Shown here piece after piece: positions 5,413-20,033 of a stretch of 39,069 nt of DNA; position 1 is the stretch's first letter; the number at the start of each line of letters is the position of its first letter. This DNA comes from Roseofilum reptotaenium CS-1145. GTDB lineage: Bacteria; Cyanobacteriota; Cyanobacteriia; Cyanobacteriales; Desertifilaceae. The stretch covers positions 1 through 39,069 of the forward strand of contig NZ_JAQMUE010000002.1 of assembly GCF_028330985.1 (NCBI RefSeq), in the 5' to 3' direction. Both the position numbers and the translations under genes were made by a program. The notes beneath the pieces are model-generated. The model worked only from the letters and a program-made list of their open reading frames with translations, did no database searches and had not been told where the DNA came from.

Positions 5413-6756
5413 ATGGACTTCTCAGAGATTCAGCCGGTATCGCTCAACTCCCATCTTGGGCAACCGATTTCGATTAATAACGCTGCCGATCTAAGTCTGT
5501 GCTTCAATAGTATGGCTAATGTGGGCGATCGCGTCGAGATGTTCTTCTCCATTGCCGAAAACGACCCCGAAGTAGCCATCCGCTCCTTCATCACCGTCAT
5601 CCGCAATTCCACCAGCGCCCCCATTCGAGCCTTAGCCATTCAAAGCTTAGGGAAAGTTGCCCAACCCTACAAGCAAGTGTTAGCCTCTTGTGAGTCTCAA
5701 GAAAGCCAAGACTTATTAAAGCTCCTCTGTGCTGAAGTTCAAAGTCGAAAAAACGATCTCACCGCTTGGGCTGCCATAGAAGCATTGAAAGAAATAGGAT
5801 TTTCTACATATCATATTGAGCATCCAGATGGGGGTAATTTATCCGAGCCACTTAGACGAATTCAAAATGAAATTCTAGACCGGCAAGTTGCACAAATAAC
5901 GAAAATAAAACAAGCCAATACTAGAGGACAGCCCACCGCAGAATATGAAAGGGTTTTAGAGTTTTGGGCTTATGGGCCAATATCAGAATTGTTTAATGAA
6001 AATCTTGAGCACTTTAATTACTTAAACCTTGTCCGAGATGTTCTTCACCTTACTCAAATTCGAGGAGTCCAGTTAGGGTTAAGTGCTAACAACCCAGCCG
6101 TTAGACAAGAGTCTTTTACCAAGGCTCAGGAAATATTTCGATCGTACTCTAAATCTAAAGATCAGAAATTCAAGAAAACATTGGGGGAAACTCTTAAAAT
6201 CCGTTTCTTGAAAGAAGAGAAAAGTGAAGACAGCGACTTGCAAAAGCTGACTCAGGCAATTTTATTTGACCAGCCCCTACAAATAAGATTCAATATTCAG
6301 AATTTAGCACAAGTAACTATTGCAGAGATGGAAGATGAAATAGCTTTTCTAGAGGAAGAATGTGATAATCTTTCTACGGTTTTCTTATCTGCTATAGAAG
6401 TTTCCAATGACGCTGGTTTAAATCAAATTCTCAGGGAGACTCAAAAGAGTTACTTATATGAACCAAAGGTATGGATAGCCAAGCTAGATGAACAGATAGG
6501 GCTAGTTGAAGCTGAAAGGCTTAAAATCTCTCATAATATTAGCTTATTAAATGAGATATTTGAAGATATCAATAGAATCGAGTTTAGGAAACTTGAGCCT
6601 AAAGATCTTAGAAGAATAGAAGCCAGCAAAGGTCCATACGATCGTAATGATTTTAGCCGTTATGAACCATTCGATTCTAATAGTACTAGCGGATGGGATC
6701 GATTAGAATACAATGAATTTTGTTTTTTGCACAGATCAAATGCTTTATATCGCTAA
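5413..6756 (+). CDS. HEAT-like helical protein of unknown function, first gene of the operon
   Basis: This is a 447-residue, largely alpha-helical soluble protein. Residues about 20-140 look like HEAT-type repeats (EVAIRSFITVIRNS, PIRALAIQSLGKV, LTAWAAIEALKEIG), usually a protein-protein or protein-nucleic-acid scaffold. The middle and C-terminal parts are charged helices, with a likely coiled coil around residues 290-390 (EMEDEIAFLEEECDNL, EQIGLVEAERLKI). No catalytic motif is recognised. The first third is C-rich and the remainder AT-rich: 35 of 60 G+C at 5581-5640 against 20 of 60 at 6301-6360. This suggests a conserved N-terminus joined to an exchanged C-terminus. It has its own candidate promoter at 5338-5367 and is followed by 163 AT-rich bases, then the small membrane protein. 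A sensor or adaptor role is conjecture. Confidence 0.75.
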   Translation: MDFSEIQPVSLNSHLGQPISINNAADLSLCFNSMANVGDRVEMFFSIAENDPEVAIRSFITVIRNSTSAPIRALAIQSLGKVAQPYKQVLASCESQESQDLLKLLCAEVQSRKNDLTAWAAIEALKEIGFSTYHIEHPDGGNLSEPLRRIQNEILDRQVAQITKIKQANTRGQPTAEYERVLEFWAYGPISELFNENLEHFNYLNLVRDVLHLTQIRGVQLGLSANNPAVRQESFTKAQEIFRSYSKSKDQKFKKTLGETLKIRFLKEEKSEDSDLQKLTQAILFDQPLQIRFNIQNLAQVTIAEMEDEIAFLEEECDNLSTVFLSAIEVSNDAGLNQILRETQKSYLYEPKVWIAKLDEQIGLVEAERLKISHNISLLNEIFEDINRIEFRKLEPKDLRRIEASKGPYDRNDFSRYEPFDSNSTSGWDRLEYNEFCFLHRSNALYR

Positions 6757-6919
6757 CGCTTCTTAAGAATTGTAGAAATACCAAGGTCATTGATAGAGTG
6801 TAGAAAATTAAGTTGTGAAGTAGATTCTATCAAAAGCGATCTAAAACACTTAATTGGTTATTGTTTAAAATCCCAGAAATATTACCTAAAATAAAATTTA
6901 GAATAGGAGAAAATATTGT

Positions 6920-7132
6920 ATGTATATGTGTCTTTTATTTACTTTACTTGTATCTTGTATAACTTTTTTTATTCCGACTATTCCGGGAAAAATAGTCTTT
7001 TTTTTAACCGCATTGTTTCTGGCTGGATATGCAGATCATCTCAACTCTCGTAAAAAGGATCTAGAAATATTTAAAAGACATGAAAAACTGCTGTCTATTT
7101 CAGATAAACTAGATAAAAATTGGAAATCATGA
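6920..7132 (+). CDS. Small two-helix membrane protein
   Basis: This 70-residue protein has two predicted membrane helices (about 3-18 and 24-42) and a charged cytoplasmic tail (SRKKDLEIFKRHEKLL). The AGGAGA upstream of the ATG at 6920 is a good ribosome site. Its stop overlaps the ATG of the ATPase gene by ATGA (7129-7132), indicating translational coupling and a shared complex. The DNA is AT-rich, like the flanking parts of its neighbours. I do not recognise the family. It could anchor the ATPase at the membrane or act as a membrane effector. Confidence 0.7.
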   Translation: MYMCLLFTLLVSCITFFIPTIPGKIVFFLTALFLAGYADHLNSRKKDLEIFKRHEKLLSISDKLDKNWKS

Positions 7133-9147
7133 ATAATGATGTTACTTTAAATTTTGAGATCACTTTTAGCGTAGGTATGGAGAATTTAAAGTCTTTAGAC
7201 AATGGCCTCCCTAACAAGAGTATACTGTTGCAATTACTATCTAAAGTAGACCCTAGCATAGTTTTATCTTGGAGATACTTATATACTCCATCAATAAAAC
7301 AGTCTCTGAAACTATTATTGGTCATTAAGATACGATCAGAGATCAAGAAGCCTAGTATGATTGAACAGATTACTGAGCTTCTGAAGAAAAGTAGCCTTAG
7401 CCGATTTTATCATTTCCAACTTATAGATGAAGACTTCTTGGAACTTAATTCCGTCCGTTCAATCAGTGAAGTCATTAAACATGCAGAATTAATCAATCCA
7501 CCCGGATTAACGGGATACCTACCCCATAGTTTTGAAACCCATTTACAAGACAATGACTTTTCCTTACTCAACTTCCTACAAAGCGCCGGATATCAAGACT
7601 TAATCTTAGAATTTTCCCTACAAACCCATAACCCTGCAACTGAACCCACCCATTGGAAACCCGCACTCGACGACTTAGTAGAGCGCCTCAACAAAAGCGA
7701 ACATCGCAAACACCATGAAACCAACCAAGCGCTCCAACTCTACAGAAAATATCAAAATCATTACGCCAACAATCAGCTTTTCACCTACAACATCAAAGCA
7801 TTAGGAAAAAATTCCACTGATACCTTTGCCATTCTGCAAACCCTACTCGAACTCACCACTCCCAACACCACCAAACACATCCCCCCCATTCTCACCTTTC
7901 AACCCGGTGATTCCCGATTCCAAGAGCATTTACAAGCCACCGAAACCGTGCAACTTGTCCCCACTCTAGACTGGGAAGGTTGGCAAACAGAAACCGGTAA
8001 ACAACTCGCTCAGAAATCCATCAAAGAAACCATTCAATCTGGTGGAATTCTCAGCAGCTTAGACGATGGTTCCCTAAGTTTTCCCGCAATTTCCTCCCGT
8101 CCCACTTTCTCTCAACCCCAACAACCCTCCCTCTCTTCCTCCAATAATGCCAACCCTAACCCCAATTCCAGCGATTTAGTCCTACGAAAAGACTCATCCC
8201 TGGCCAAAATCTTCCAACCCCAACTCCCCAAAGTCGAACACTTAAAACCCTTACAGCGACTCACCACCTACGAAGAAATCCAAGGCTTCTTGCAATTCTT
8301 CACTCCTCCCCCATCCACCACAACCACCAACTCACCCACCCTATCCGCAGAAGAAATTTTTAAGCAATACAAACACTTAATTACCTCAGACACCTACATC
8401 ATCGGACTTGATGACAACGGTAACCCAGTCACCTCCAGTTGGGCCAAAATTCCCCATCGTCTCATCGCAGGTTTACCCGGTGCAGGAAAAAGCAACTTTA
8501 TCAACTGGCTCCTCTTTCAATTTCTATATATCAACCCCAAGCGAAAAGTCTATATCGCTGACTTTGGCGGCGTTGATTTCCAATTTCTGAAGAGACTTCC
8601 CTTAGCGGTGGAAATTATCGATACTCCTGAAGATTGCCAAAAGCTAGTTGAAACCATTCATGAACAAGAATATGAACAACGTTTACAACTGATGCAGGAA
8701 TATTATGTTGATAATGTCAAATTACTCCAGGAAGAAGGGGTAGAGATAGACCGTACTCTCTGGGTCATTGATGAAGCCGCAGATATTGCTGACGAATCCA
8801 TGAAATTGAAAAACTCTATCGAAAAACACCTCAAACAATATGCTCGCAAAGGTCGAAAATATGGGATACAAGTCCTCTATTGCACCCAGCGGCCCACAAC
8901 TGAAGTGATTACCAAACAAGTTACCGACCAATGTGAAGAAAAAGTCGTATTTAGAGTTTCCGCCGATTCTAGCCAACGCATTTTATATGATACCATTGCT
9001 GGAGAGATTCCCAAAAATGCTCCTGGTCGAGCTTGGTTAGATGGTTCTGCGGGTAAAATGTTTGTGAACGTCCCCAAAATGGACAAACCTCAAGGCACAA
9101 AAATTCCCATCTCAGAGACCCTCTGGCGCTATTTTGAATCTAAATAA
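7129..9147 (+). CDS. FtsK/SpoIIIE-type ATPase (putative DNA translocase) with a novel N-terminal region
   Basis: This is a 672-residue protein from the ATG at 7129; a TTG three codons earlier is open but ignores the ATGA coupling with the previous gene. The C-terminal third is an FtsK-type RecA motor. It has PHRLIAGLPGAGKSNF with Walker A at 448-455, LWVIDEAAD with Walker B D548/E549, and the diagnostic YCTQRPTTEVITK sensor segment followed by VVFRVSADSSQRILYD. There is no FtsK membrane domain and no C-terminal winged-helix gamma domain. The first 440 residues match nothing I know and include a Ser/Pro/Asn-rich linker (about 325-355). Codon use changes sharply within the gene: 18 of 60 G+C at 7141-7200 but 33 of 60 at 7861-7920. 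Likely role: pumping or remodelling double-stranded DNA together with the nuclease encoded downstream. Confidence 0.85.
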   Translation: MNNDVTLNFEITFSVGMENLKSLDNGLPNKSILLQLLSKVDPSIVLSWRYLYTPSIKQSLKLLLVIKIRSEIKKPSMIEQITELLKKSSLSRFYHFQLIDEDFLELNSVRSISEVIKHAELINPPGLTGYLPHSFETHLQDNDFSLLNFLQSAGYQDLILEFSLQTHNPATEPTHWKPALDDLVERLNKSEHRKHHETNQALQLYRKYQNHYANNQLFTYNIKALGKNSTDTFAILQTLLELTTPNTTKHIPPILTFQPGDSRFQEHLQATETVQLVPTLDWEGWQTETGKQLAQKSIKETIQSGGILSSLDDGSLSFPAISSRPTFSQPQQPSLSSSNNANPNPNSSDLVLRKDSSLAKIFQPQLPKVEHLKPLQRLTTYEEIQGFLQFFTPPPSTTTTNSPTLSAEEIFKQYKHLITSDTYIIGLDDNGNPVTSSWAKIPHRLIAGLPGAGKSNFINWLLFQFLYINPKRKVYIADFGGVDFQFLKRLPLAVEIIDTPEDCQKLVETIHEQEYEQRLQLMQEYYVDNVKLLQEEGVEIDRTLWVIDEAADIADESMKLKNSIEKHLKQYARKGRKYGIQVLYCTQRPTTEVITKQVTDQCEEKVVFRVSADSSQRILYDTIAGEIPKNAPGRAWLDGSAGKMFVNVPKMDKPQGTKIPISETLWRYFESK

Positions 9148-9180
9148 CGTATTTTCTTTTCAATCACAGGAGCAAATCTT

Positions 9181-9402
9181 ATGAGCAGCTTATCCGAAAG
9201 TATAGAGGAATTTCGCAGCATGATCAACAGACTGGTTGACCAACTCGAACAAGTTAGCAATTCCTCACGTACCATTCCTTCAACAGAAGTCGATCAACTC
9301 AGCCAAAAATTAGCTGAATTAATGGAAAACTTAGAAGAAGCAGATGGTCAAATGCGAACTGCTACTGAGTTATTAGACGAAATCAGAAGCACCTGGGGTT
9401 AA
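9181..9402 (+). CDS. Small helical protein, paralogue of the GIY-YIG protein's N-terminal domain
   Basis: This 73-residue, all-helical acidic protein has a clear ribosome site (CAGGAG) before the ATG at 9181. It aligns without gaps over 71 residues with the start of the next protein. Shared positions include the opening SL..E.I..F, the central S-x-E-(V/I)-D-(Q/E)-L, the following AE, and a closing G. It probably forms a coiled-coil dimer, or hetero-oligomers with that domain. It ends 4 bases before the next start, so expression is coupled. Its function is unknown; it may recruit or restrain the nuclease. Confidence 0.75.
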   Translation: MSSLSESIEEFRSMINRLVDQLEQVSNSSRTIPSTEVDQLSQKLAELMENLEEADGQMRTATELLDEIRSTWG

Positions 9403-9406
9403 ACTC

Positions 9407-10093
9407 ATGTCTCTAGCCGAAGAAATTGTCACGTTTCAAAGGCGAATTCATCAATCTTTGAACAGTTTCTACGAGATTCAGAAACTATCTGAAGCATTAA
9501 CATCTTGTGAAATAGATGAACTCCGCGAACGATTTGCTGAAATCCAAGATTTATGTGAAGGAGGATTATTTGATATTAAACAACTCATTGAACACCTGCA
9601 TGACATCAACCGTCAATTGGGTTCAAAATCTCTAGACAGCTTTAAGTCTGTCTCCTCTATTGCCAAATCAAAAAAATCTCCTCTATCTTCTCGCACTAAG
9701 AGTTCTACGCGTAAAACCGTTGGGCAGAACTCAGATTCTCTATCTTTCGCTAAAGACGAAATAAAAGGAGGAATCTTTAATGAGACTTCTGTGAGTAAAG
9801 TTAAGCCTAATCTCAAAGGAATTTACCATATCTGGGAGTCTCCTGAAGTCCAATACGTGGGCAAATCAGACGACTGCATACGCGGGCGATTGGAAAAACA
9901 TTTAAAGGGAGAAGGGAACCAAAAAATTGCACAAGCGCTTCAATCCGGTGCAGAATTAGTCTTTGCCTACTGGGAATCTCCCCATCCCACCTACGAAGAA
10001 GCTCTGGAGATTGCTAGACTGAAAAATGCCGGACTTTTAGATAATCAGAAGCGCGAAAGAAAACCCTTAATTATTCATTTAGATGATGATTAA
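9407..10093 (+). CDS. GIY-YIG nuclease-superfamily protein with N-terminal helical domain
   Basis: This is a 228-residue protein. Residues 1-72 are a helical domain shared with the preceding 73-residue protein. Residues about 78-130 are a Ser/Lys-rich flexible linker. The C-terminal domain begins with the GIY of KGIYHIW (138-140) and YVG of QYVGKS (150-152). It continues with basic RGRLEKH (R158 or R161 as the catalytic arginine), a glutamate in the YEEALEIARL helix, and N213. That order is typical of GIY-YIG endonucleases, although the domain is short and activity is not guaranteed. It is the last gene of the operon. Its stop codon lies within the right copy of the 22-nt direct repeat. Paired with an FtsK-type ATPase it would be the effector nuclease. 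Confidence 0.8.
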   Translation: MSLAEEIVTFQRRIHQSLNSFYEIQKLSEALTSCEIDELRERFAEIQDLCEGGLFDIKQLIEHLHDINRQLGSKSLDSFKSVSSIAKSKKSPLSSRTKSSTRKTVGQNSDSLSFAKDEIKGGIFNETSVSKVKPNLKGIYHIWESPEVQYVGKSDDCIRGRLEKHLKGEGNQKIAQALQSGAELVFAYWESPHPTYEEALEIARLKNAGLLDNQKRERKPLIIHLDDD

Positions 10094-12128: not shown

Positions 12129-13245
12129 ATGGATACGCTAACGCTCAAACGCGAAGTAGACTTGTTGTGCGATCGCCTGGGTAAAACCCAGGACTATCTT
12201 TGAGCTACCCATCCTCAATGCTAAAATCCAAGACCTGGAACAACTTGCCTCTCAACCCAATTTCTGGGACGACCAAAACCAGGCTGGCCAAACGCTCCAA
12301 GAGCTAAACGACCTCAAATCTTCTCTTCAACAGTTTGAAAACTGGCAAGGCACATTAGAAGAAGCGAGGGCCATCTTGGAGTTGTTAGAGTTAGAAGCCG
12401 ATGAATCACTTCTCCAAGAGGCCCAATCTCATGTTTCCCATTTAAGCCAGGATCTCGATCAATGGGAACTGCAACAATTGCTATCGGGAACCTACGATAA
12501 AAGTGGAGCGGTTCTAACTATCAATGCAGGAGCAGGGGGAACTGATGCTCAGGACTGGGCAGACATGCTGCTGCGCATGTATAAGCGCTGGGGCAATGCT
12601 CAAGGCTATAAAGTTGAACTGACTGAAATTTCCGAAGGAGACGAAGCCGGTATTAAATCAGCCACCCTAGAAATCAATGGCCGGTATGCTTACGGTTACC
12701 TGAAAGCGGAAAAAGGAACCCATCGGTTAGTGAGAATCTCCCCCTTTAATGCCAATGGTAAACGACAAACTAGCTTTGCTGGAGTCGAAGTCATGCCGAT
12801 TTTAAATGAAGAGGTACAGCTAGAGATCCCGGAAAAAGACCTGGAAATCACGACTTCTCGTGCGGGTGGTAAAGGGGGTCAAAATGTTAACAAGGTAGAA
12901 ACGGCTGTTCGCATTACTCACCTCCCTACTCGGTTATCGGTGCGCTGTACTGAAGAGCGATCGCAACTTCAAAACAAAGAAAAAGCCCTCGCTCTCTTAA
13001 AATCTAAATTACTGGTGATTGCCCAAGAACAACGGGCCCAAGAAATTGCCGATATTCGCGGCGATATCGTCGAAGCGGCCTGGGGAAATCAGATCCGGAA
13101 CTATGTTTTCCATCCCTATCAAATGGTTAAAGATCTGCGTACCAATGTAGAAACAACTGCTATTATGGATGTGATGAACGGTGAAATTATGAGCTTTGTC
13201 GAAGCCTATTTGCGCCAAGAAAATCAACTCATCGAAGTGACTTAA
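12129..13245 (+). CDS. prfB: Peptide chain release factor 2, expressed by programmed +1 frameshift
   Basis: RF2 terminates translation at UGA and UAA. The reading frame starts at the ATG at 12129 and runs 24 codons to CTT TGA (12198-12203). It then continues in the +1 frame from GAG (12202) to the stop at 13245, giving 371 residues. On that numbering the codon-recognition tripeptide SPF is at 204-206 and the hydrolysis motif GGQ at 249-251, almost exactly as in E. coli RF2 (205-207, 250-252). This confirms both the start and the shift. The in-frame UGA makes synthesis autoregulated: low RF2 favours shifting. It is monocistronic as far as can be seen. Confidence 0.96.
12190..12204 (+). promoter_or_regulatory. 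Programmed +1 frameshift site of prfB
   Basis: AGGA (12190-12193) acts as the internal Shine-Dalgarno-like element, followed by CTAT, the slippery CTT and TGA (12201-12203), then GAG in the new frame. The spacing mirrors the E. coli AGGGGG-TAT-CTT-TGA signal, although the Shine-Dalgarno is weaker. Confidence 0.92.
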
Positions 13246-13389
13246 CCTGCCTTAATCGGCGATCGGGAGACCCTTTAATCTTGATTGGGCATAATTACGG
13301 GAATATATTCGTTGCGATGTTTACGATAGATTTGAAAATCGCTAGAAAAGCAATTAAAACTCCAGTATCTAGAATGATTATCGAGGTCA

Positions 13390-13632
13390 TTATCCTCCAA
13401 ATCCTTCTAAGTATTCTGGATTATGAGAAAGGTCTTCAATCTCACTATCTAGACAGCCGATAAATTCCTGTGCTGCTTCTGCAAACGATTTTTGTGCCCC
13501 TTTGTTATTATTTAAGTCTAAGGGTCTTTTATGCGATCGCAATTCTAATCTTTCAATAAATTCAATCACTTGATGTTGTTGTTCCGGGGGGAAATCTCGG
13601 ATTTTTTGGATTGCCATTTCTAGAGTAAGCAT
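13390..13632 (-). CDS. Small DUF2281-like antitoxin-type protein, orphan
   Basis: This 80-residue protein begins MLTLEMAIQKIRDFPPEQQHQVIEFIE, the helical DUF2281-type segment seen in many cyanobacterial antitoxin-like proteins. The rest is acidic and ends NPEYLEGFGG. The ATG is at 13632. No toxin gene lies on either side: prfB ends upstream of its 3' end and a PilC-like gene lies on the other side. It is therefore an orphan or has a partner elsewhere. Toxin neutralisation is inferred only from family resemblance. Confidence 0.7.
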   Translation of the reverse strand: MLTLEMAIQKIRDFPPEQQHQVIEFIERLELRSHKRPLDLNNNKGAQKSFAEAAQEFIGCLDSEIEDLSHNPEYLEGFGG

Positions 13633-13679
13633 AATTTTATTCCGGGTTGGTATTCTCAGTTTTTAAATTTTTAATGGAT

Positions 13680-14645
13680 CTAAAGATTGGTCGCATTCAA
13701 AATGACCAACATACCACGAATACAGACAATTACCACCAGATTGCTTAAGGCCAAAATGCTGATTAAGCGTAAACTGCTGGCCATAAACTTTAATCCTTTT
13801 TCTAATTCTGCCCCATAATGTTGACCGATCTGTTGCCAAGCAAGGTCTAGTTCTCCTGTTTCTTCCCCTGTACGCAGAAAGTCGATCGCCAATGGAGGGA
13901 ATTTACCCTTGAAGCTTTCACTTAAGGTTTGTCCCCGCCGCATTTGACGAGTTACCGTTGTTACTCGTTTTTTGATCGTTCGATTTGGGGTTTGTTGTTG
14001 AATCCATTCCAGGGCCGTCAGGACAGGCATTCCACAGCTTAAGAGTAAGCGCAATTGGGATAAATACCAGAGGCTATAGGCTTCCATTAAGGGACGTACT
14101 AAGGGCAGATAACTGCCCATTTGAAATAGGGTAGCGCCCAAATACCGAGGTAAGGAAAAAGCCAGTATCCATAAAGTCAAGGCGATCGCCACACTCTGAA
14201 GCCAAAACATCGGATGTAGCAAGGCAGCTATATTGGAATTCAAAATCGCAGCCAGCAAGGTTAACAGGCTCCAGAGAGCGAGTAAGCTACTGCTACGAAT
14301 AGATTGATAATAGGTTTTCCATTTCCCTTGGAATTGGGTGATTTCGGCTAAAATCAGGCAAGTTTCGGCTAAAGTTCCTTGGGTTTCGGCTAACCGAATC
14401 ACGGAGATAGTCCAAGGATCAAAATAGGTGTGCCGTTTGCGATCGGCTGCCGCACGAACGGTGAGGGCAGACGCGAGATCCTGACCATTGCGTATGGCGC
14501 GACTGGCCCCTTGCAGATAACATTGGAAATGGCGATCGCTCTCCCGTCCTGCTAAAGTTAACCCTTGTCTGAGGCTAATTCCAGACTGGAGCAACTCAGC
14601 CAAAGTCGTAAAGAAGAGAACTTTTTCTTGGGTCTTCAATGCCAT
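13680..14645 (-). CDS. Short type II secretion / type IV pilus inner-membrane protein (GspF/PilC-like)
   Basis: This 321-residue protein has two T2SSF-type repeats (about 5-120 and 205-315), each followed by hydrophobic helices (about 120-175 and 290-320). Family hallmarks are LAELLQSGISLRQGL, LLLSCGMPVLTALEW and DFLRTGEETGELD. Such proteins organise pilin or pseudopilin assembly in the inner membrane with an ATPase of the PilB/GspE type. At 321 residues it is shorter than the usual 400 and lacks the N-terminal cytoplasmic extension. No other pilus gene is nearby. It lies 4 bases downstream of the AEC permease gene, so the two form an operon, an odd pairing. Confidence 0.85.
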   Translation of the reverse strand: MALKTQEKVLFFTTLAELLQSGISLRQGLTLAGRESDRHFQCYLQGASRAIRNGQDLASALTVRAAADRKRHTYFDPWTISVIRLAETQGTLAETCLILAEITQFQGKWKTYYQSIRSSSLLALWSLLTLLAAILNSNIAALLHPMFWLQSVAIALTLWILAFSLPRYLGATLFQMGSYLPLVRPLMEAYSLWYLSQLRLLLSCGMPVLTALEWIQQQTPNRTIKKRVTTVTRQMRRGQTLSESFKGKFPPLAIDFLRTGEETGELDLAWQQIGQHYGAELEKGLKFMASSLRLISILALSNLVVIVCIRGMLVILNATNL

Positions 14646-18710: not shown

Positions 18711-20033
18711 TTATTGATTCTGAGCAACCCGGAAACCGGCATGTTGATAAAAATTACGGCGGAACCAATTGCGGCAAGAAGGAGATGCATAAGCGCCGGT
18801 ACTGGCCCAAGATCCACCTAACATAATCTGATGATCGCTATCGAAAAATGGGGCAGAATAATCTTTGTAAAGGGGATGAGGTTCAAATCCGGGTAAGGGA
18901 TTAAATTCATCACTGAGCCATTCCCAAACATTACCCCGAAGGTCATTAAGTCCAGAGGATGCTTCAGAGTTTTTTAAGCTTCCTACGGGAGAAGGGGAAC
19001 CAAATTTTACATTTAGATTAAAGTCGCGATCGCTCTGGGAACCCCTTGCTGCAATGTTCCATTCTGCTTCACTCATTAAGCGGGTTCCTTCCCCTTTCCA
19101 GCGACAATAAGCCATGGCTTCATAATGATTGACTTCAACGGGCCAATCTAGGGGTAAGTCTATATTCTCAAAGAGGGTGCGATATTGATAACCACCATTT
19201 TTATCCATCCAGAATTTGGGATGCTTGATGTTATTCTCTTGCTTCCAATTCCAAGATTCATTATTCCAAAACTCTGGGTCTTCATAGCCATCATCTTGGA
19301 TGAATTGCCAGAATTCTCCGTTGGTAATCAGATGCTGACTGGCCAAAAAAGGTTGGACTTCTACGGTTCGAGTTCCATATTCGCTATCCCAACCGTAGGT
19401 ATTGGACGTTTGAGGTTTTCCTAGATGAACCACTCCCCCAGAAACTGCCATCATTTTATTTTTTGGAACGGTTTGATTGGAAGGTGCATATTGCCAGGTT
19501 TCGGGACGTTTCAGGTGGTTAACTGAGAATTGTCTGAGCAACATGGAAGAGGTTTCAAAATGAATCCGGTTATGCTCTATTCCCATGATTAAAGCCCAAA
19601 GGGGATGGTTTTGAGTAATGGGAAGATTTAGGGGACAGGTTTTAAGAACTTTAGTAATCGTTTCTTTGGCTTTCTCGCGATAGTTCCAAACTTGTTCAAC
19701 TTGCGGCCAATTCATGGTTTTGATGGCTTTTTCTAGCTCTTCTGGACTACTGGGATCGACTCCTATTTCAAATAATATTTCGTAGTTAGGGTTAATCCGC
19801 CGGTCTAATAATTCTACTTGAATCAGTTTATTAATGTAGAAAACGGGGGAGTGTCCGAGGTAGAAGATAATCGGGTTTCTGAGGGGATCGGGATTAAGAT
19901 AAAAGCTCTCCTCATGGACTAAGCTTGTCATGAGAATTTCTTCTAATTCCCAGGAATTTTCAAAATAGTCCAGGAGGGTTTGGCGATCGCACTTATCCAG
20001 CTCTGGAGTCGGTAGTGACAGGAGTATATTCAT
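18711..20033 (-). CDS. egtB: EgtB-type sulfoxide synthase (DinB + FGE-sulfatase domains)
   Basis: This is a 440-residue non-heme iron enzyme that joins a sulfur donor to the imidazole C2 of hercynine using oxygen. The N-terminal DinB-like four-helix domain (about 10-180) carries the three-histidine iron site: H61 (YLGHSPVFY) and H154/H158 in EHNRIHFE. The C-terminal formylglycine-generating-enzyme-like domain (about 190-440) shows LMSEAEWNIAARG, LRGNVWEWLSDEF and GGSWAST. There is no EgtA or EgtC nearby, so cysteine may be used directly, as proposed for Chlorobium-type enzymes. An OvoA-like activity is excluded only by context. It follows egtD by 6 bases and is clearly co-transcribed. Confidence 0.85.
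   Translation of the reverse strand: MNILLSLPTPELDKCDRQTLLDYFENSWELEEILMTSLVHEESFYLNPDPLRNPIIFYLGHSPVFYINKLIQVELLDRRINPNYEILFEIGVDPSSPEELEKAIKTMNWPQVEQVWNYREKAKETITKVLKTCPLNLPITQNHPLWALIMGIEHNRIHFETSSMLLRQFSVNHLKRPETWQYAPSNQTVPKNKMMAVSGGVVHLGKPQTSNTYGWDSEYGTRTVEVQPFLASQHLITNGEFWQFIQDDGYEDPEFWNNESWNWKQENNIKHPKFWMDKNGGYQYRTLFENIDLPLDWPVEVNHYEAMAYCRWKGEGTRLMSEAEWNIAARGSQSDRDFNLNVKFGSPSPVGSLKNSEASSGLNDLRGNVWEWLSDEFNPLPGFEPHPLYKDYSAPFFDSDHQIMLGGSWASTGAYASPSCRNWFRRNFYQHAGFRVAQNQ

What the first reader, a model, noticed from the sequence alone, without database searches (positions are those of the whole stretch)
5413..10093. Candidate undescribed system: HEAT-like protein, membrane protein, FtsK-type ATPase, helical protein and GIY-YIG nuclease in one operon
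Five same-strand genes are tightly packed: an ATGA overlap between genes 2 and 3, and gaps of 33 and 4 bases after gene 3. The ATPase has Walker A GLPGAGKS, Walker B VIDEA and the FtsK-specific CTQRPTTEVITK segment, but neither the FtsK membrane domain nor the gamma domain. Its 440-residue N-terminus is unrecognised. The last gene carries GIY and YVG motifs. Motor plus nuclease plus small membrane protein is the logic of many anti-phage systems (compare HerA-nuclease pairs), but this combination matches none I can name.
Basis: partly seen in the sequence, partly recalled or inferred. Interest (0 to 1): 0.8.

Follow-up and report, generated by a model that had tools for sequence, protein, structure and literature searches.

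The report
Candidate cyanobacterial toxin-delivery operon, swappable toxins
A conserved five-gene unit, found here in a set of cyanobacteria, looks like a machine that handles toxins whose killing end is exchanged from strain to strain, often with a protective gene beside it; I found no earlier description of the set, and export of the toxin has not been shown.

Summary
The five genes are real and the coordinates correct. The set recurs: the ATPase is followed by the same two genes in 21 of 21 loci from 21 genomes, 20 close and one diverged; named hosts include Roseofilum, Planktothrix, Microcoleus and Tychonema. Gene 4 is a solo ~72-residue helical hairpin. Gene 5 is the same hairpin fused to a C-terminus that falls into 8 unrelated groups, GIY-YIG here. 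Elsewhere it is a MafB19-type deaminase beside Imm1, or EndoU beside MafI. Toxins swap on a constant backbone: ATPases 96% identical carry unrelated toxins, and ATPases 43% identical carry toxins 93% identical. Two modules also occur as free cassettes. This is a polymorphic-toxin system, not an anti-phage set. I propose that the FtsK-type motor, with the HEAT and membrane proteins, exports a hairpin pair carrying the toxin: T7SS-like logic, but the T7SS features I tested are not met. Export, pairing and target are inferred. A named immunity gene follows gene 5 in 8 of 21 loci, not in Roseofilum; the window's gene 1 has an in-frame stop relative to a sister species. No description was found in the held library.

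The parts
5413..6756 (+). Gene 1, HEAT-like protein, 447 aa. Relative to the G213 homologue it has an in-frame stop; 45 further residues stay readable behind it.
   Evidence: HEAT_2 18.7 bits, below the cut-off of 27.7. BLAST homologues upstream of the ATPase in 18 of 21 loci, window counted. Stop and tail.
6920..7132 (+). Gene 2, small membrane protein, 70 aa
   Evidence: Kyte-Doolittle peak 2.30. Only a chance-level Pfam match. A hydrophobic segment with a peak of at least 1.79 occurs upstream of the ATPase in 21 of 21 loci, in a small protein or in the HEAT protein.
7129..9147 (+). Gene 3, FtsK-type ATPase, 672 aa; unrecognised N-terminal region plus one motor domain
   Evidence: FtsK_SpoIIIE 51.2 bits, cut-off 24. 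Nearest solved chains TcpA, FtsK, YukB. AF2 confident only for the motor.
9181..9402 (+). Gene 4, solo helical hairpin, 73 aa, presumed partner of gene 5
   Evidence: Hairpin profile match; same place in 21 of 21 loci.
9407..9625 (+). Gene 5, N-terminal hairpin, the constant carrier domain
   Evidence: Same profile; AF2 helices 3-33 and 36-70 with pLDDT above 90 by ten-residue block.
9797..10093 (+). Gene 5, C-terminal GIY-YIG nuclease, the exchangeable toxin module
   Evidence: 19.4 bits here (cut-off 22.6); 23.9 in the G213 and G322 orthologues, 20.0 in G334 and 22.1 in the G346 fragment. Signature residues invariant in 4 of 4. AF2 did not fold this part.
6280..7460 (+). Segment that varies strongly within the genus: end of gene 1, gene 2, start of gene 3
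   Evidence: No blastn alignment across it in three relatives (about 6225-7205 in G213). HEAT 281-447 is 38-44% identical and ATPase 1-100 36-50%, between flanks of 64-97%.

Best explanation
A polymorphic-toxin system of cyanobacteria with its own trafficking apparatus. Shown by sequence: gene 5 is a constant helical hairpin that carries an exchangeable C-terminal module, several of these being named toxin domains; gene 4 is the same hairpin alone; both always sit, in the loci seen, behind an FtsK-type motor with a HEAT-like protein and membrane segments. Inferred: the two hairpins pair; the HEAT and membrane proteins dock the motor at the inner membrane, with a SPOR-like part facing peptidoglycan in some loci; ATP hydrolysis drives the hairpin pair with its toxin out towards neighbouring cells; the neighbouring immunity protein protects kin. 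In this window the toxin is a GIY-YIG nuclease, so cleavage of DNA in the target is the expected effect.
For: Order ATPase - hairpin - hairpin fusion in 21 of 21 loci. Eight unrelated C-terminal groups on one carrier. MafB19-deam, EndoU, CdiA_C and Imm1 above Pfam cut-offs; MafI above the NCBIfam cut-off directly behind gene 5 in 7 loci and Imm1 in one. Swaps: G462/G479 ATPase 96%, toxins unrelated; G462/G531 ATPase 43%, toxins 93%; two toxin types are scattered on the ATPase tree. Fused and free forms of two modules. Solo and toxin hairpins co-vary beyond the ATPase, partial r 0.46. Membrane segments in 21 of 21; four invariant cysteines in the SPOR-like domain of 6 of 6 aligned sequences.
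Against: No export has been shown and no outer-membrane component is recognised. The motor scores higher against the DNA pumps TcpA and FtsK than against T7SS YukB (92, 79.5 and 63.8 bits). No named immunity gene directly follows gene 5 in 13 of 21 loci, the four Roseofilum loci included. Four of the eight C-terminal groups match no toxin model, and a fifth only one below cut-off. Taken together the toxin types follow the ATPase tree better than shuffles do (8 changes against a mean of 12.0), so exchange is occasional. The co-variation test is liberal. The window copy of gene 1 may be impaired.
Confidence: 0.62

Rival explanations
1. Intracellular conflict system: the hairpin recruits the toxin module to the ATPase complex, which holds or frees it inside the producing cell on infection or damage; the neighbouring 'immunity' proteins act as antitoxins.
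For: The motor is closest in sequence to DNA pumps. No exporter is recognised. The Roseofilum copies lack a named immunity gene, and a HicA gene follows gene 5 in G334 and G346.
Against: MafB, CdiA_C, EndoU and Imm1 families belong to exported toxins in the literature read (PMC3482391, and recall). Membrane segments in 21 of 21 loci and a cysteine-rich SPOR-like domain behind one in 8 of 21. Exchange of C-termini and free cassettes fit exported polymorphic toxins.
Confidence: 0.22
2. A divergent type VII secretion system by descent: single-domain EssC relative with WXG100-like hairpins.
For: Top NCBIfam match of the ATPase is EssC (56.2 bits); partner hairpin plus hairpin-toxin is the logic of LXG toxins; a footnote in PMC3482391 mentions solo WXG domains with a three-domain YueA-like ATPase in cyanobacteria and other phyla.
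Against: The EssC match is far below its cut-off of 778.4. One motor domain, no membrane segment in the ATPase. The WXG100 model is not met: 13.6 bits against 44.85 for the window's gene 4, no match for three other solo hairpins. TcpA and FtsK score higher than T7SS ATPases in the PDB.
Confidence: 0.08
3. Conjugation or DNA-partition module: the motor pumps DNA and the last gene processes it.
For: Best solved relative is the conjugation coupling protein TcpA.
Against: No relaxase among the 20 window proteins scanned with Pfam (not all were scanned). Toxin and immunity genes in the same place elsewhere. No plasmid record covers 80% of the ATPase.
Confidence: 0.04
4. Anti-phage motor-nuclease system.
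For: Motor plus nuclease in one operon; PADLOC motor matches (SspH 60 bits, mad8 60.9, HerA 31).
Against: The nuclease is not constant, and other effectors come with immunity genes.
Confidence: 0.04

Closest known systems
[quoted passage not shown] 2012, PMC3482391; abstract and passages seen)
   Same: Constant N-terminal trafficking domain, exchangeable C-terminal toxin, neighbouring immunity genes, free toxin cassettes; MafB19-deam, EndoU, CdiA_C, Imm1 and MafI families
   Different: The carrier is a ~72-residue hairpin with a solo twin and a dedicated FtsK/HEAT/membrane gene set that I did not find among the routes in the passages read.
Type VIIb secretion with LXG toxins and small helical partners (PMC11217815 passages; PMC9600955 listing only)
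   Same: FtsK-family ATPase, small helical hairpin, helical N-terminus on exchangeable toxins
   Different: One motor domain instead of several, no membrane segment in the ATPase, WXG100 model not met, host is a diderm cyanobacterium, HEAT and SPOR-like parts.
Solo WXG domains with a three-domain YueA-like ATPase ('mobile versions of T7SS', footnote in PMC3482391)
   Same: Reported from cyanobacteria among other phyla; small helical protein with an FtsK/HerA ATPase
   Different: Three motor domains with only the middle one active and no toxin fusion mentioned there; here one motor and a toxin on the hairpin.
TcpA conjugation coupling protein and FtsK
   Same: Motor domain: TcpA 92 bits, FtsK 79.5 bits; Foldseek ranks 1-5 TcpA
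   Different: No FtsK gamma domain or membrane domain matched; toxin-immunity neighbourhood in relatives.
HerA-nuclease anti-phage systems
   Same: FtsK/HerA-family motor beside a nuclease in this window
   Different: The nuclease is one of eight exchangeable modules and HerA models score low (31 bits at best in PADLOC).

Membership tests
Polymorphic toxin system | Constant N-terminus with unrelated C-termini | tested here: met
   8 C-terminal groups over 21 loci, one hairpin profile
Polymorphic toxin system | Known toxin domains at the C-terminus | tested here: met
   MafB19-deam 36.9 bits (cut-off 27), EndoU 44.2 (25.3), GIY-YIG 23.9 (22.6) in two orthologues. Four groups match no toxin model and a fifth only below cut-off.
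Polymorphic toxin system | Immunity gene next to the toxin gene | tested here: met
   Met in 8 of 21 loci: Imm1 in G211, MafI in G543, G308, G447, G462, G531, G575, G323. Not met in the window and the other Roseofilum loci.
Polymorphic toxin system | Free toxin cassettes and module exchange | tested here: met
Polymorphic toxin system | Export of the toxin | not testable with these tools
   Needs fractionation or competition experiments
Type VII secretion system | Membrane-anchored EccC/EssC ATPase with several NTPase domains | tested here: not met
   One motor domain (residues 428-617; AF2); EssC model 56.2 bits against a cut-off of 778.4
Type VII secretion system | WXG100 family protein | tested here: not met
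   TIGR03930 at 13.6 bits against 44.85 for gene 4; no match for three other solo hairpins
Type VII secretion system | EsaB/YukD-like protein | not tested
   None noticed in the loci; no specific search was run
HerA-nuclease anti-phage system | HerA-type motor with a constant nuclease partner | tested here: not met
   The partner varies; the motor is FtsK-type with DUF87 below cut-off (14.8 against 23.2)
FtsK DNA translocase | Gamma domain and N-terminal membrane domain | tested here: not met
   No such Pfam match at E up to 1
GIY-YIG nuclease | Curated domain score and GIY / Y-G / R / E / N signature (signature recalled) | tested here: met
   Orthologues in G213 and G322 over cut-off, the window itself below; residues invariant in 4 of 4. 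PDB sequence search gave only chance matches.

The most novel reading that the evidence does not exclude
A new class of toxin secretion system in diderm photosynthetic bacteria: a single-domain FtsK motor on a HEAT and SPOR-like membrane scaffold exports paired helical hairpins carrying exchangeable toxins, perhaps at the septa between filament cells, having reached type VII logic independently.
Probability: 0.42. Interest if true: 0.87.

Novelty: new variant of a known kind. Interest (0 to 1): 0.74.

Why it matters
The passages that I read place T7SS-borne toxins in Firmicutes, Actinobacteria and Chloroflexi. A compact gene set in cyanobacteria with a motor, paired hairpins and exchangeable toxins with immunity genes would add a delivery route for competition in mats and blooms. 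It makes a clean question testable: does a single-domain FtsK motor move protein rather than DNA? It also gives a likely role to proteins otherwise known only as FtsK-domain or unnamed.

Tried and rejected
Anti-phage reading: PADLOC matches lie mainly on the motor. Viral contigs: one scan, 4 pattern matches, no relative. Plasmids: 297 records matched, none covering 80% of the ATPase. T7SS by descent: tested features not met. The AF2 model of the ATPase N-terminal region is too poor to use (mean pLDDT 54.5), and so is the C-terminal part of gene 5. A PDB sequence search with the GIY-YIG alignment gave only chance matches. The PDB search with the hairpin gave generic coiled coils; H. pylori HP0062, which I recall as ESAT-6-like, appears at E 0.7-0.9 and I treat it as chance. 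Foldseek with the hairpin model had no match at E 0.001. The SPOR match is sub-threshold (14.5-16.2 bits, cut-off 21, in 3 of 4 sequences) and is used as a hint. G135 is very diverged (branch 2.71-2.96) and is a less certain member. G323, a near copy of G308, was left out of the tree and of the co-variation test (20 of 21 loci used). A search in the order of G135 (6 genomes) found only G135 itself.
Full report
What is in the window. The ATPase has one FtsK_SpoIIIE motor (51.2 bits, cut-off 24) behind about 427 residues without a Pfam match at E up to 1. The HEAT match of gene 1 is weak. The GIY-YIG match of gene 5 is below cut-off in the window (19.4 against 22.6) but above it in the G213 and G322 orthologues (23.9 each), and the signature residues are invariant in 4 of 4 sequences. 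The window lies in the genus of Roseofilum acuticapitatum BLCC-M154: G213, listed as same genus, has a contig of the same length and the same match as that named record.

The set recurs. Of 292 genomes of the phylum, 26 have some match at E up to 1e-10, mostly to the motor or to the N-terminal region alone; five, the window included, are near full length. Of 388 genomes of the order, 34 have a match at E up to 1e-20, 20 of them over the full length. In the family of Planktothrix rubescens (G255), 11 of 61 genomes have it, so the distribution is patchy. A scan of the genome collection gave 11 loci, all titled as cyanobacteria; it used two short patterns, so absence elsewhere is not shown. Taking the 20 full-length loci and the diverged G135, the ATPase is followed by a solo hairpin gene and then by a hairpin-fusion gene in 21 of 21. 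A hairpin profile, built from 26 copies of 13 of these loci, was run on 25 genomes: the 21 have exactly two copies each, both here; G372, G074 and G157 have none; G346 has a partial one. A gene related to gene 1 by BLAST lies upstream in 18 of 21, the window counted; G531 has no direct hit, and in G262 and G543 the contig ends there. A hydrophobic segment (Kyte-Doolittle peak of at least 1.79) lies upstream in 21 of 21.

The last gene is a toxin with an exchangeable end. The C-termini of the 21 fusion proteins form 8 groups without similarity to one another at E 1e-4. By curated models, G211 has a MafB19-type deaminase (36.9 bits, cut-off 27) followed by Imm1 (52.3, cut-off 22.4), and G543 has EndoU (44.2, cut-off 25.3) followed by MafI (58.4, cut-off 31); G255 carries a free CdiA_C gene behind gene 5 (45.7, cut-off 26.6). 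G416 has EndoU as a free gene (40.3) followed by MafI (58.3). Of the remaining groups, the G255-type, G262, G402 and G135 matched no toxin model, and the G308-type only HP0268 below cut-off; 'REase' for the G255-type is my label. A gene over the cut-off of an immunity family directly follows gene 5 in 8 of 21 loci: Imm1 in G211, MafI in G543, G308, G323, G447, G462, G531 and G575. In the other 13 no named immunity gene was found, though unnamed genes follow in several.

Exchange is direct. G462 and G479 share 96% of the ATPase and 97% of the solo hairpin, yet their toxins are unrelated. G462 and G531 share 43% of the ATPase and 31% of the toxin hairpin, yet their toxins are 93% identical. On the ATPase tree the REase type needs 5 changes (at least 4 forced by well-supported branches) and the 283-residue type 3, while the GIY-YIG type is one clade; over all types together the tree needs 8 changes against a shuffled mean of 12.0, so exchange is occasional rather than free. 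Two modules occur both fused and free: EndoU (fused in G543, free in G416, 86%) and the G262 toxin (free in G308 and G323, 78%); the genes that follow them are 97% and 48% identical. Recombination of C-termini with standalone cassettes is the hallmark of polymorphic toxins in Zhang et al. 2012 (PMC3482391; start of abstract and passages seen).

The carrier. AF2 gives the first 70 residues of gene 5 as a two-helix hairpin with pLDDT of 90 or more in every ten-residue block; the rest of that model is unusable. Solo and toxin hairpins co-vary beyond what the ATPase explains (partial r 0.46 over 190 pairs, permutation p 0.0002; 0.39 for the 169 pairs with ATPases under 75% identical). An obligate pair would show this, but the test is liberal. 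In 8 of 21 loci the HEAT protein, or the gene behind it, ends in a domain with a shared motif; in the six copies aligned, four cysteines are invariant, and three of four scanned have a sub-threshold SPOR match. Coming after a membrane segment, this suggests a periplasmic, peptidoglycan-facing part. Among four Roseofilum species, HEAT residues 281-447 are 38-44% and ATPase residues 1-100 36-50% identical to the window, between flanks of 64-97% (blastn gap). The end of gene 1, gene 2 and the start of the ATPase thus vary together, as a docking unit might; in G213 the motor is also lower, at 73%.

Mechanism. I take the system to be a toxin-delivery machine in which the motor acts on the hairpin pair. 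This step is inferred. By sequence the motor is closer to DNA pumps (TcpA 92 bits, FtsK 79.5) than to the T7SS motor YukB (63.8), although among NCBIfam models EssC comes first (56.2 bits, far below its cut-off), so the motor does not decide between protein and DNA. The main rival is an intracellular conflict system. The families MafB19-deam, CdiA_C and Imm1, which serve exported toxins elsewhere, and the membrane parts favour export.

Weak points for this window. Gene 1 has an in-frame stop relative to G213, so this copy may be impaired. No named immunity gene follows the GIY-YIG gene in any of the four Roseofilum loci: in G334 the next genes are HicA (51.7 bits, cut-off 27) and HicB-like, in G213 HicB-like (55.1 bits, cut-off 27), and in the window and G322 no open frame of 60 or more codons follows on that strand within about 300 and 150 bases. 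In G346 a transposase gene (72.9 bits, cut-off 29.2) sits directly before a truncated gene 5, with HicA (50.6 bits) behind it.

A sister class. Six genomes (G074, G157, G517, G576, G520, G371) have a ~1050-residue ATPase that shares only the N-terminal region. In 3 of 3 scanned the motor is HerA-type (DUF87 24.5-26.2 bits, cut-off 23.2). HEAT relatives lie beside it in 5 of the 6 by BLAST, G520 having no hit, and two helical proteins of about 125 and 185 residues were seen by eye. G074 and G157 have no hairpin.

Literature. Searches (none) gave no description of this set; only open-licence papers are held, and listings beyond the first 20 were not seen. The nearest precedent is a footnote in PMC3482391 on solo WXG domains with a three-domain YueA-like ATPase in cyanobacteria and other phyla. 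Passages, not whole texts, were read of PMC3482391, PMC11217815, PMC7159879, PMC12136450 and PMC12839542.

Verdict. A polymorphic-toxin system with what looks like its own trafficking machine. By effector logic it is a new variant of a known kind, possibly a new delivery system.

Noticed in passing
L032, L033, L087-L090 (G074, G157, G517, G576, G520, G371): A sister class: a ~1050-residue ATPase sharing only the N-terminal region, with a HerA-type motor (DUF87 over cut-off in 3 of 3 scanned), HEAT relatives and two helical proteins of about 125 and 185 residues; no toxin seen.
   Followed up: partly
L027:6615-7603 and 13383-14380 (G213); L028:6244-7192 and 12796-13743 (G211): In two genomes the operon lies between long direct repeats: about 1 kb of a DUF4351-like gene at 86.5%, and 949 bases of an aldehyde-dehydrogenase gene at 95.3%, which suggests insertion or exchange by recombination.
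   Followed up: partly
L137:32-1275 (G346): A Roseofilum genome without the ATPase keeps a truncated gene 5 directly behind a transposase gene, followed by HicA.
   Followed up: yes
window:6757-6894: Behind the stop of gene 1 the frame encodes 45 residues that resemble the C-terminus of the G213 homologue.
   Followed up: yes
L029:7107-7944 (G255): Internal tandem repeat of about 216 bases inside the HEAT-protein gene.
   Followed up: no
window:10665-11951: Two tandem Uma2-type genes on the minus strand, 85% identical in DNA over 629 bases.
   Followed up: no
window:17300-18058 and 18711-20033: A 2OG-Fe(II) oxygenase with a sub-threshold match to the WelO5 halogenase, near an FGE-sulfatase-type protein.
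   Followed up: no
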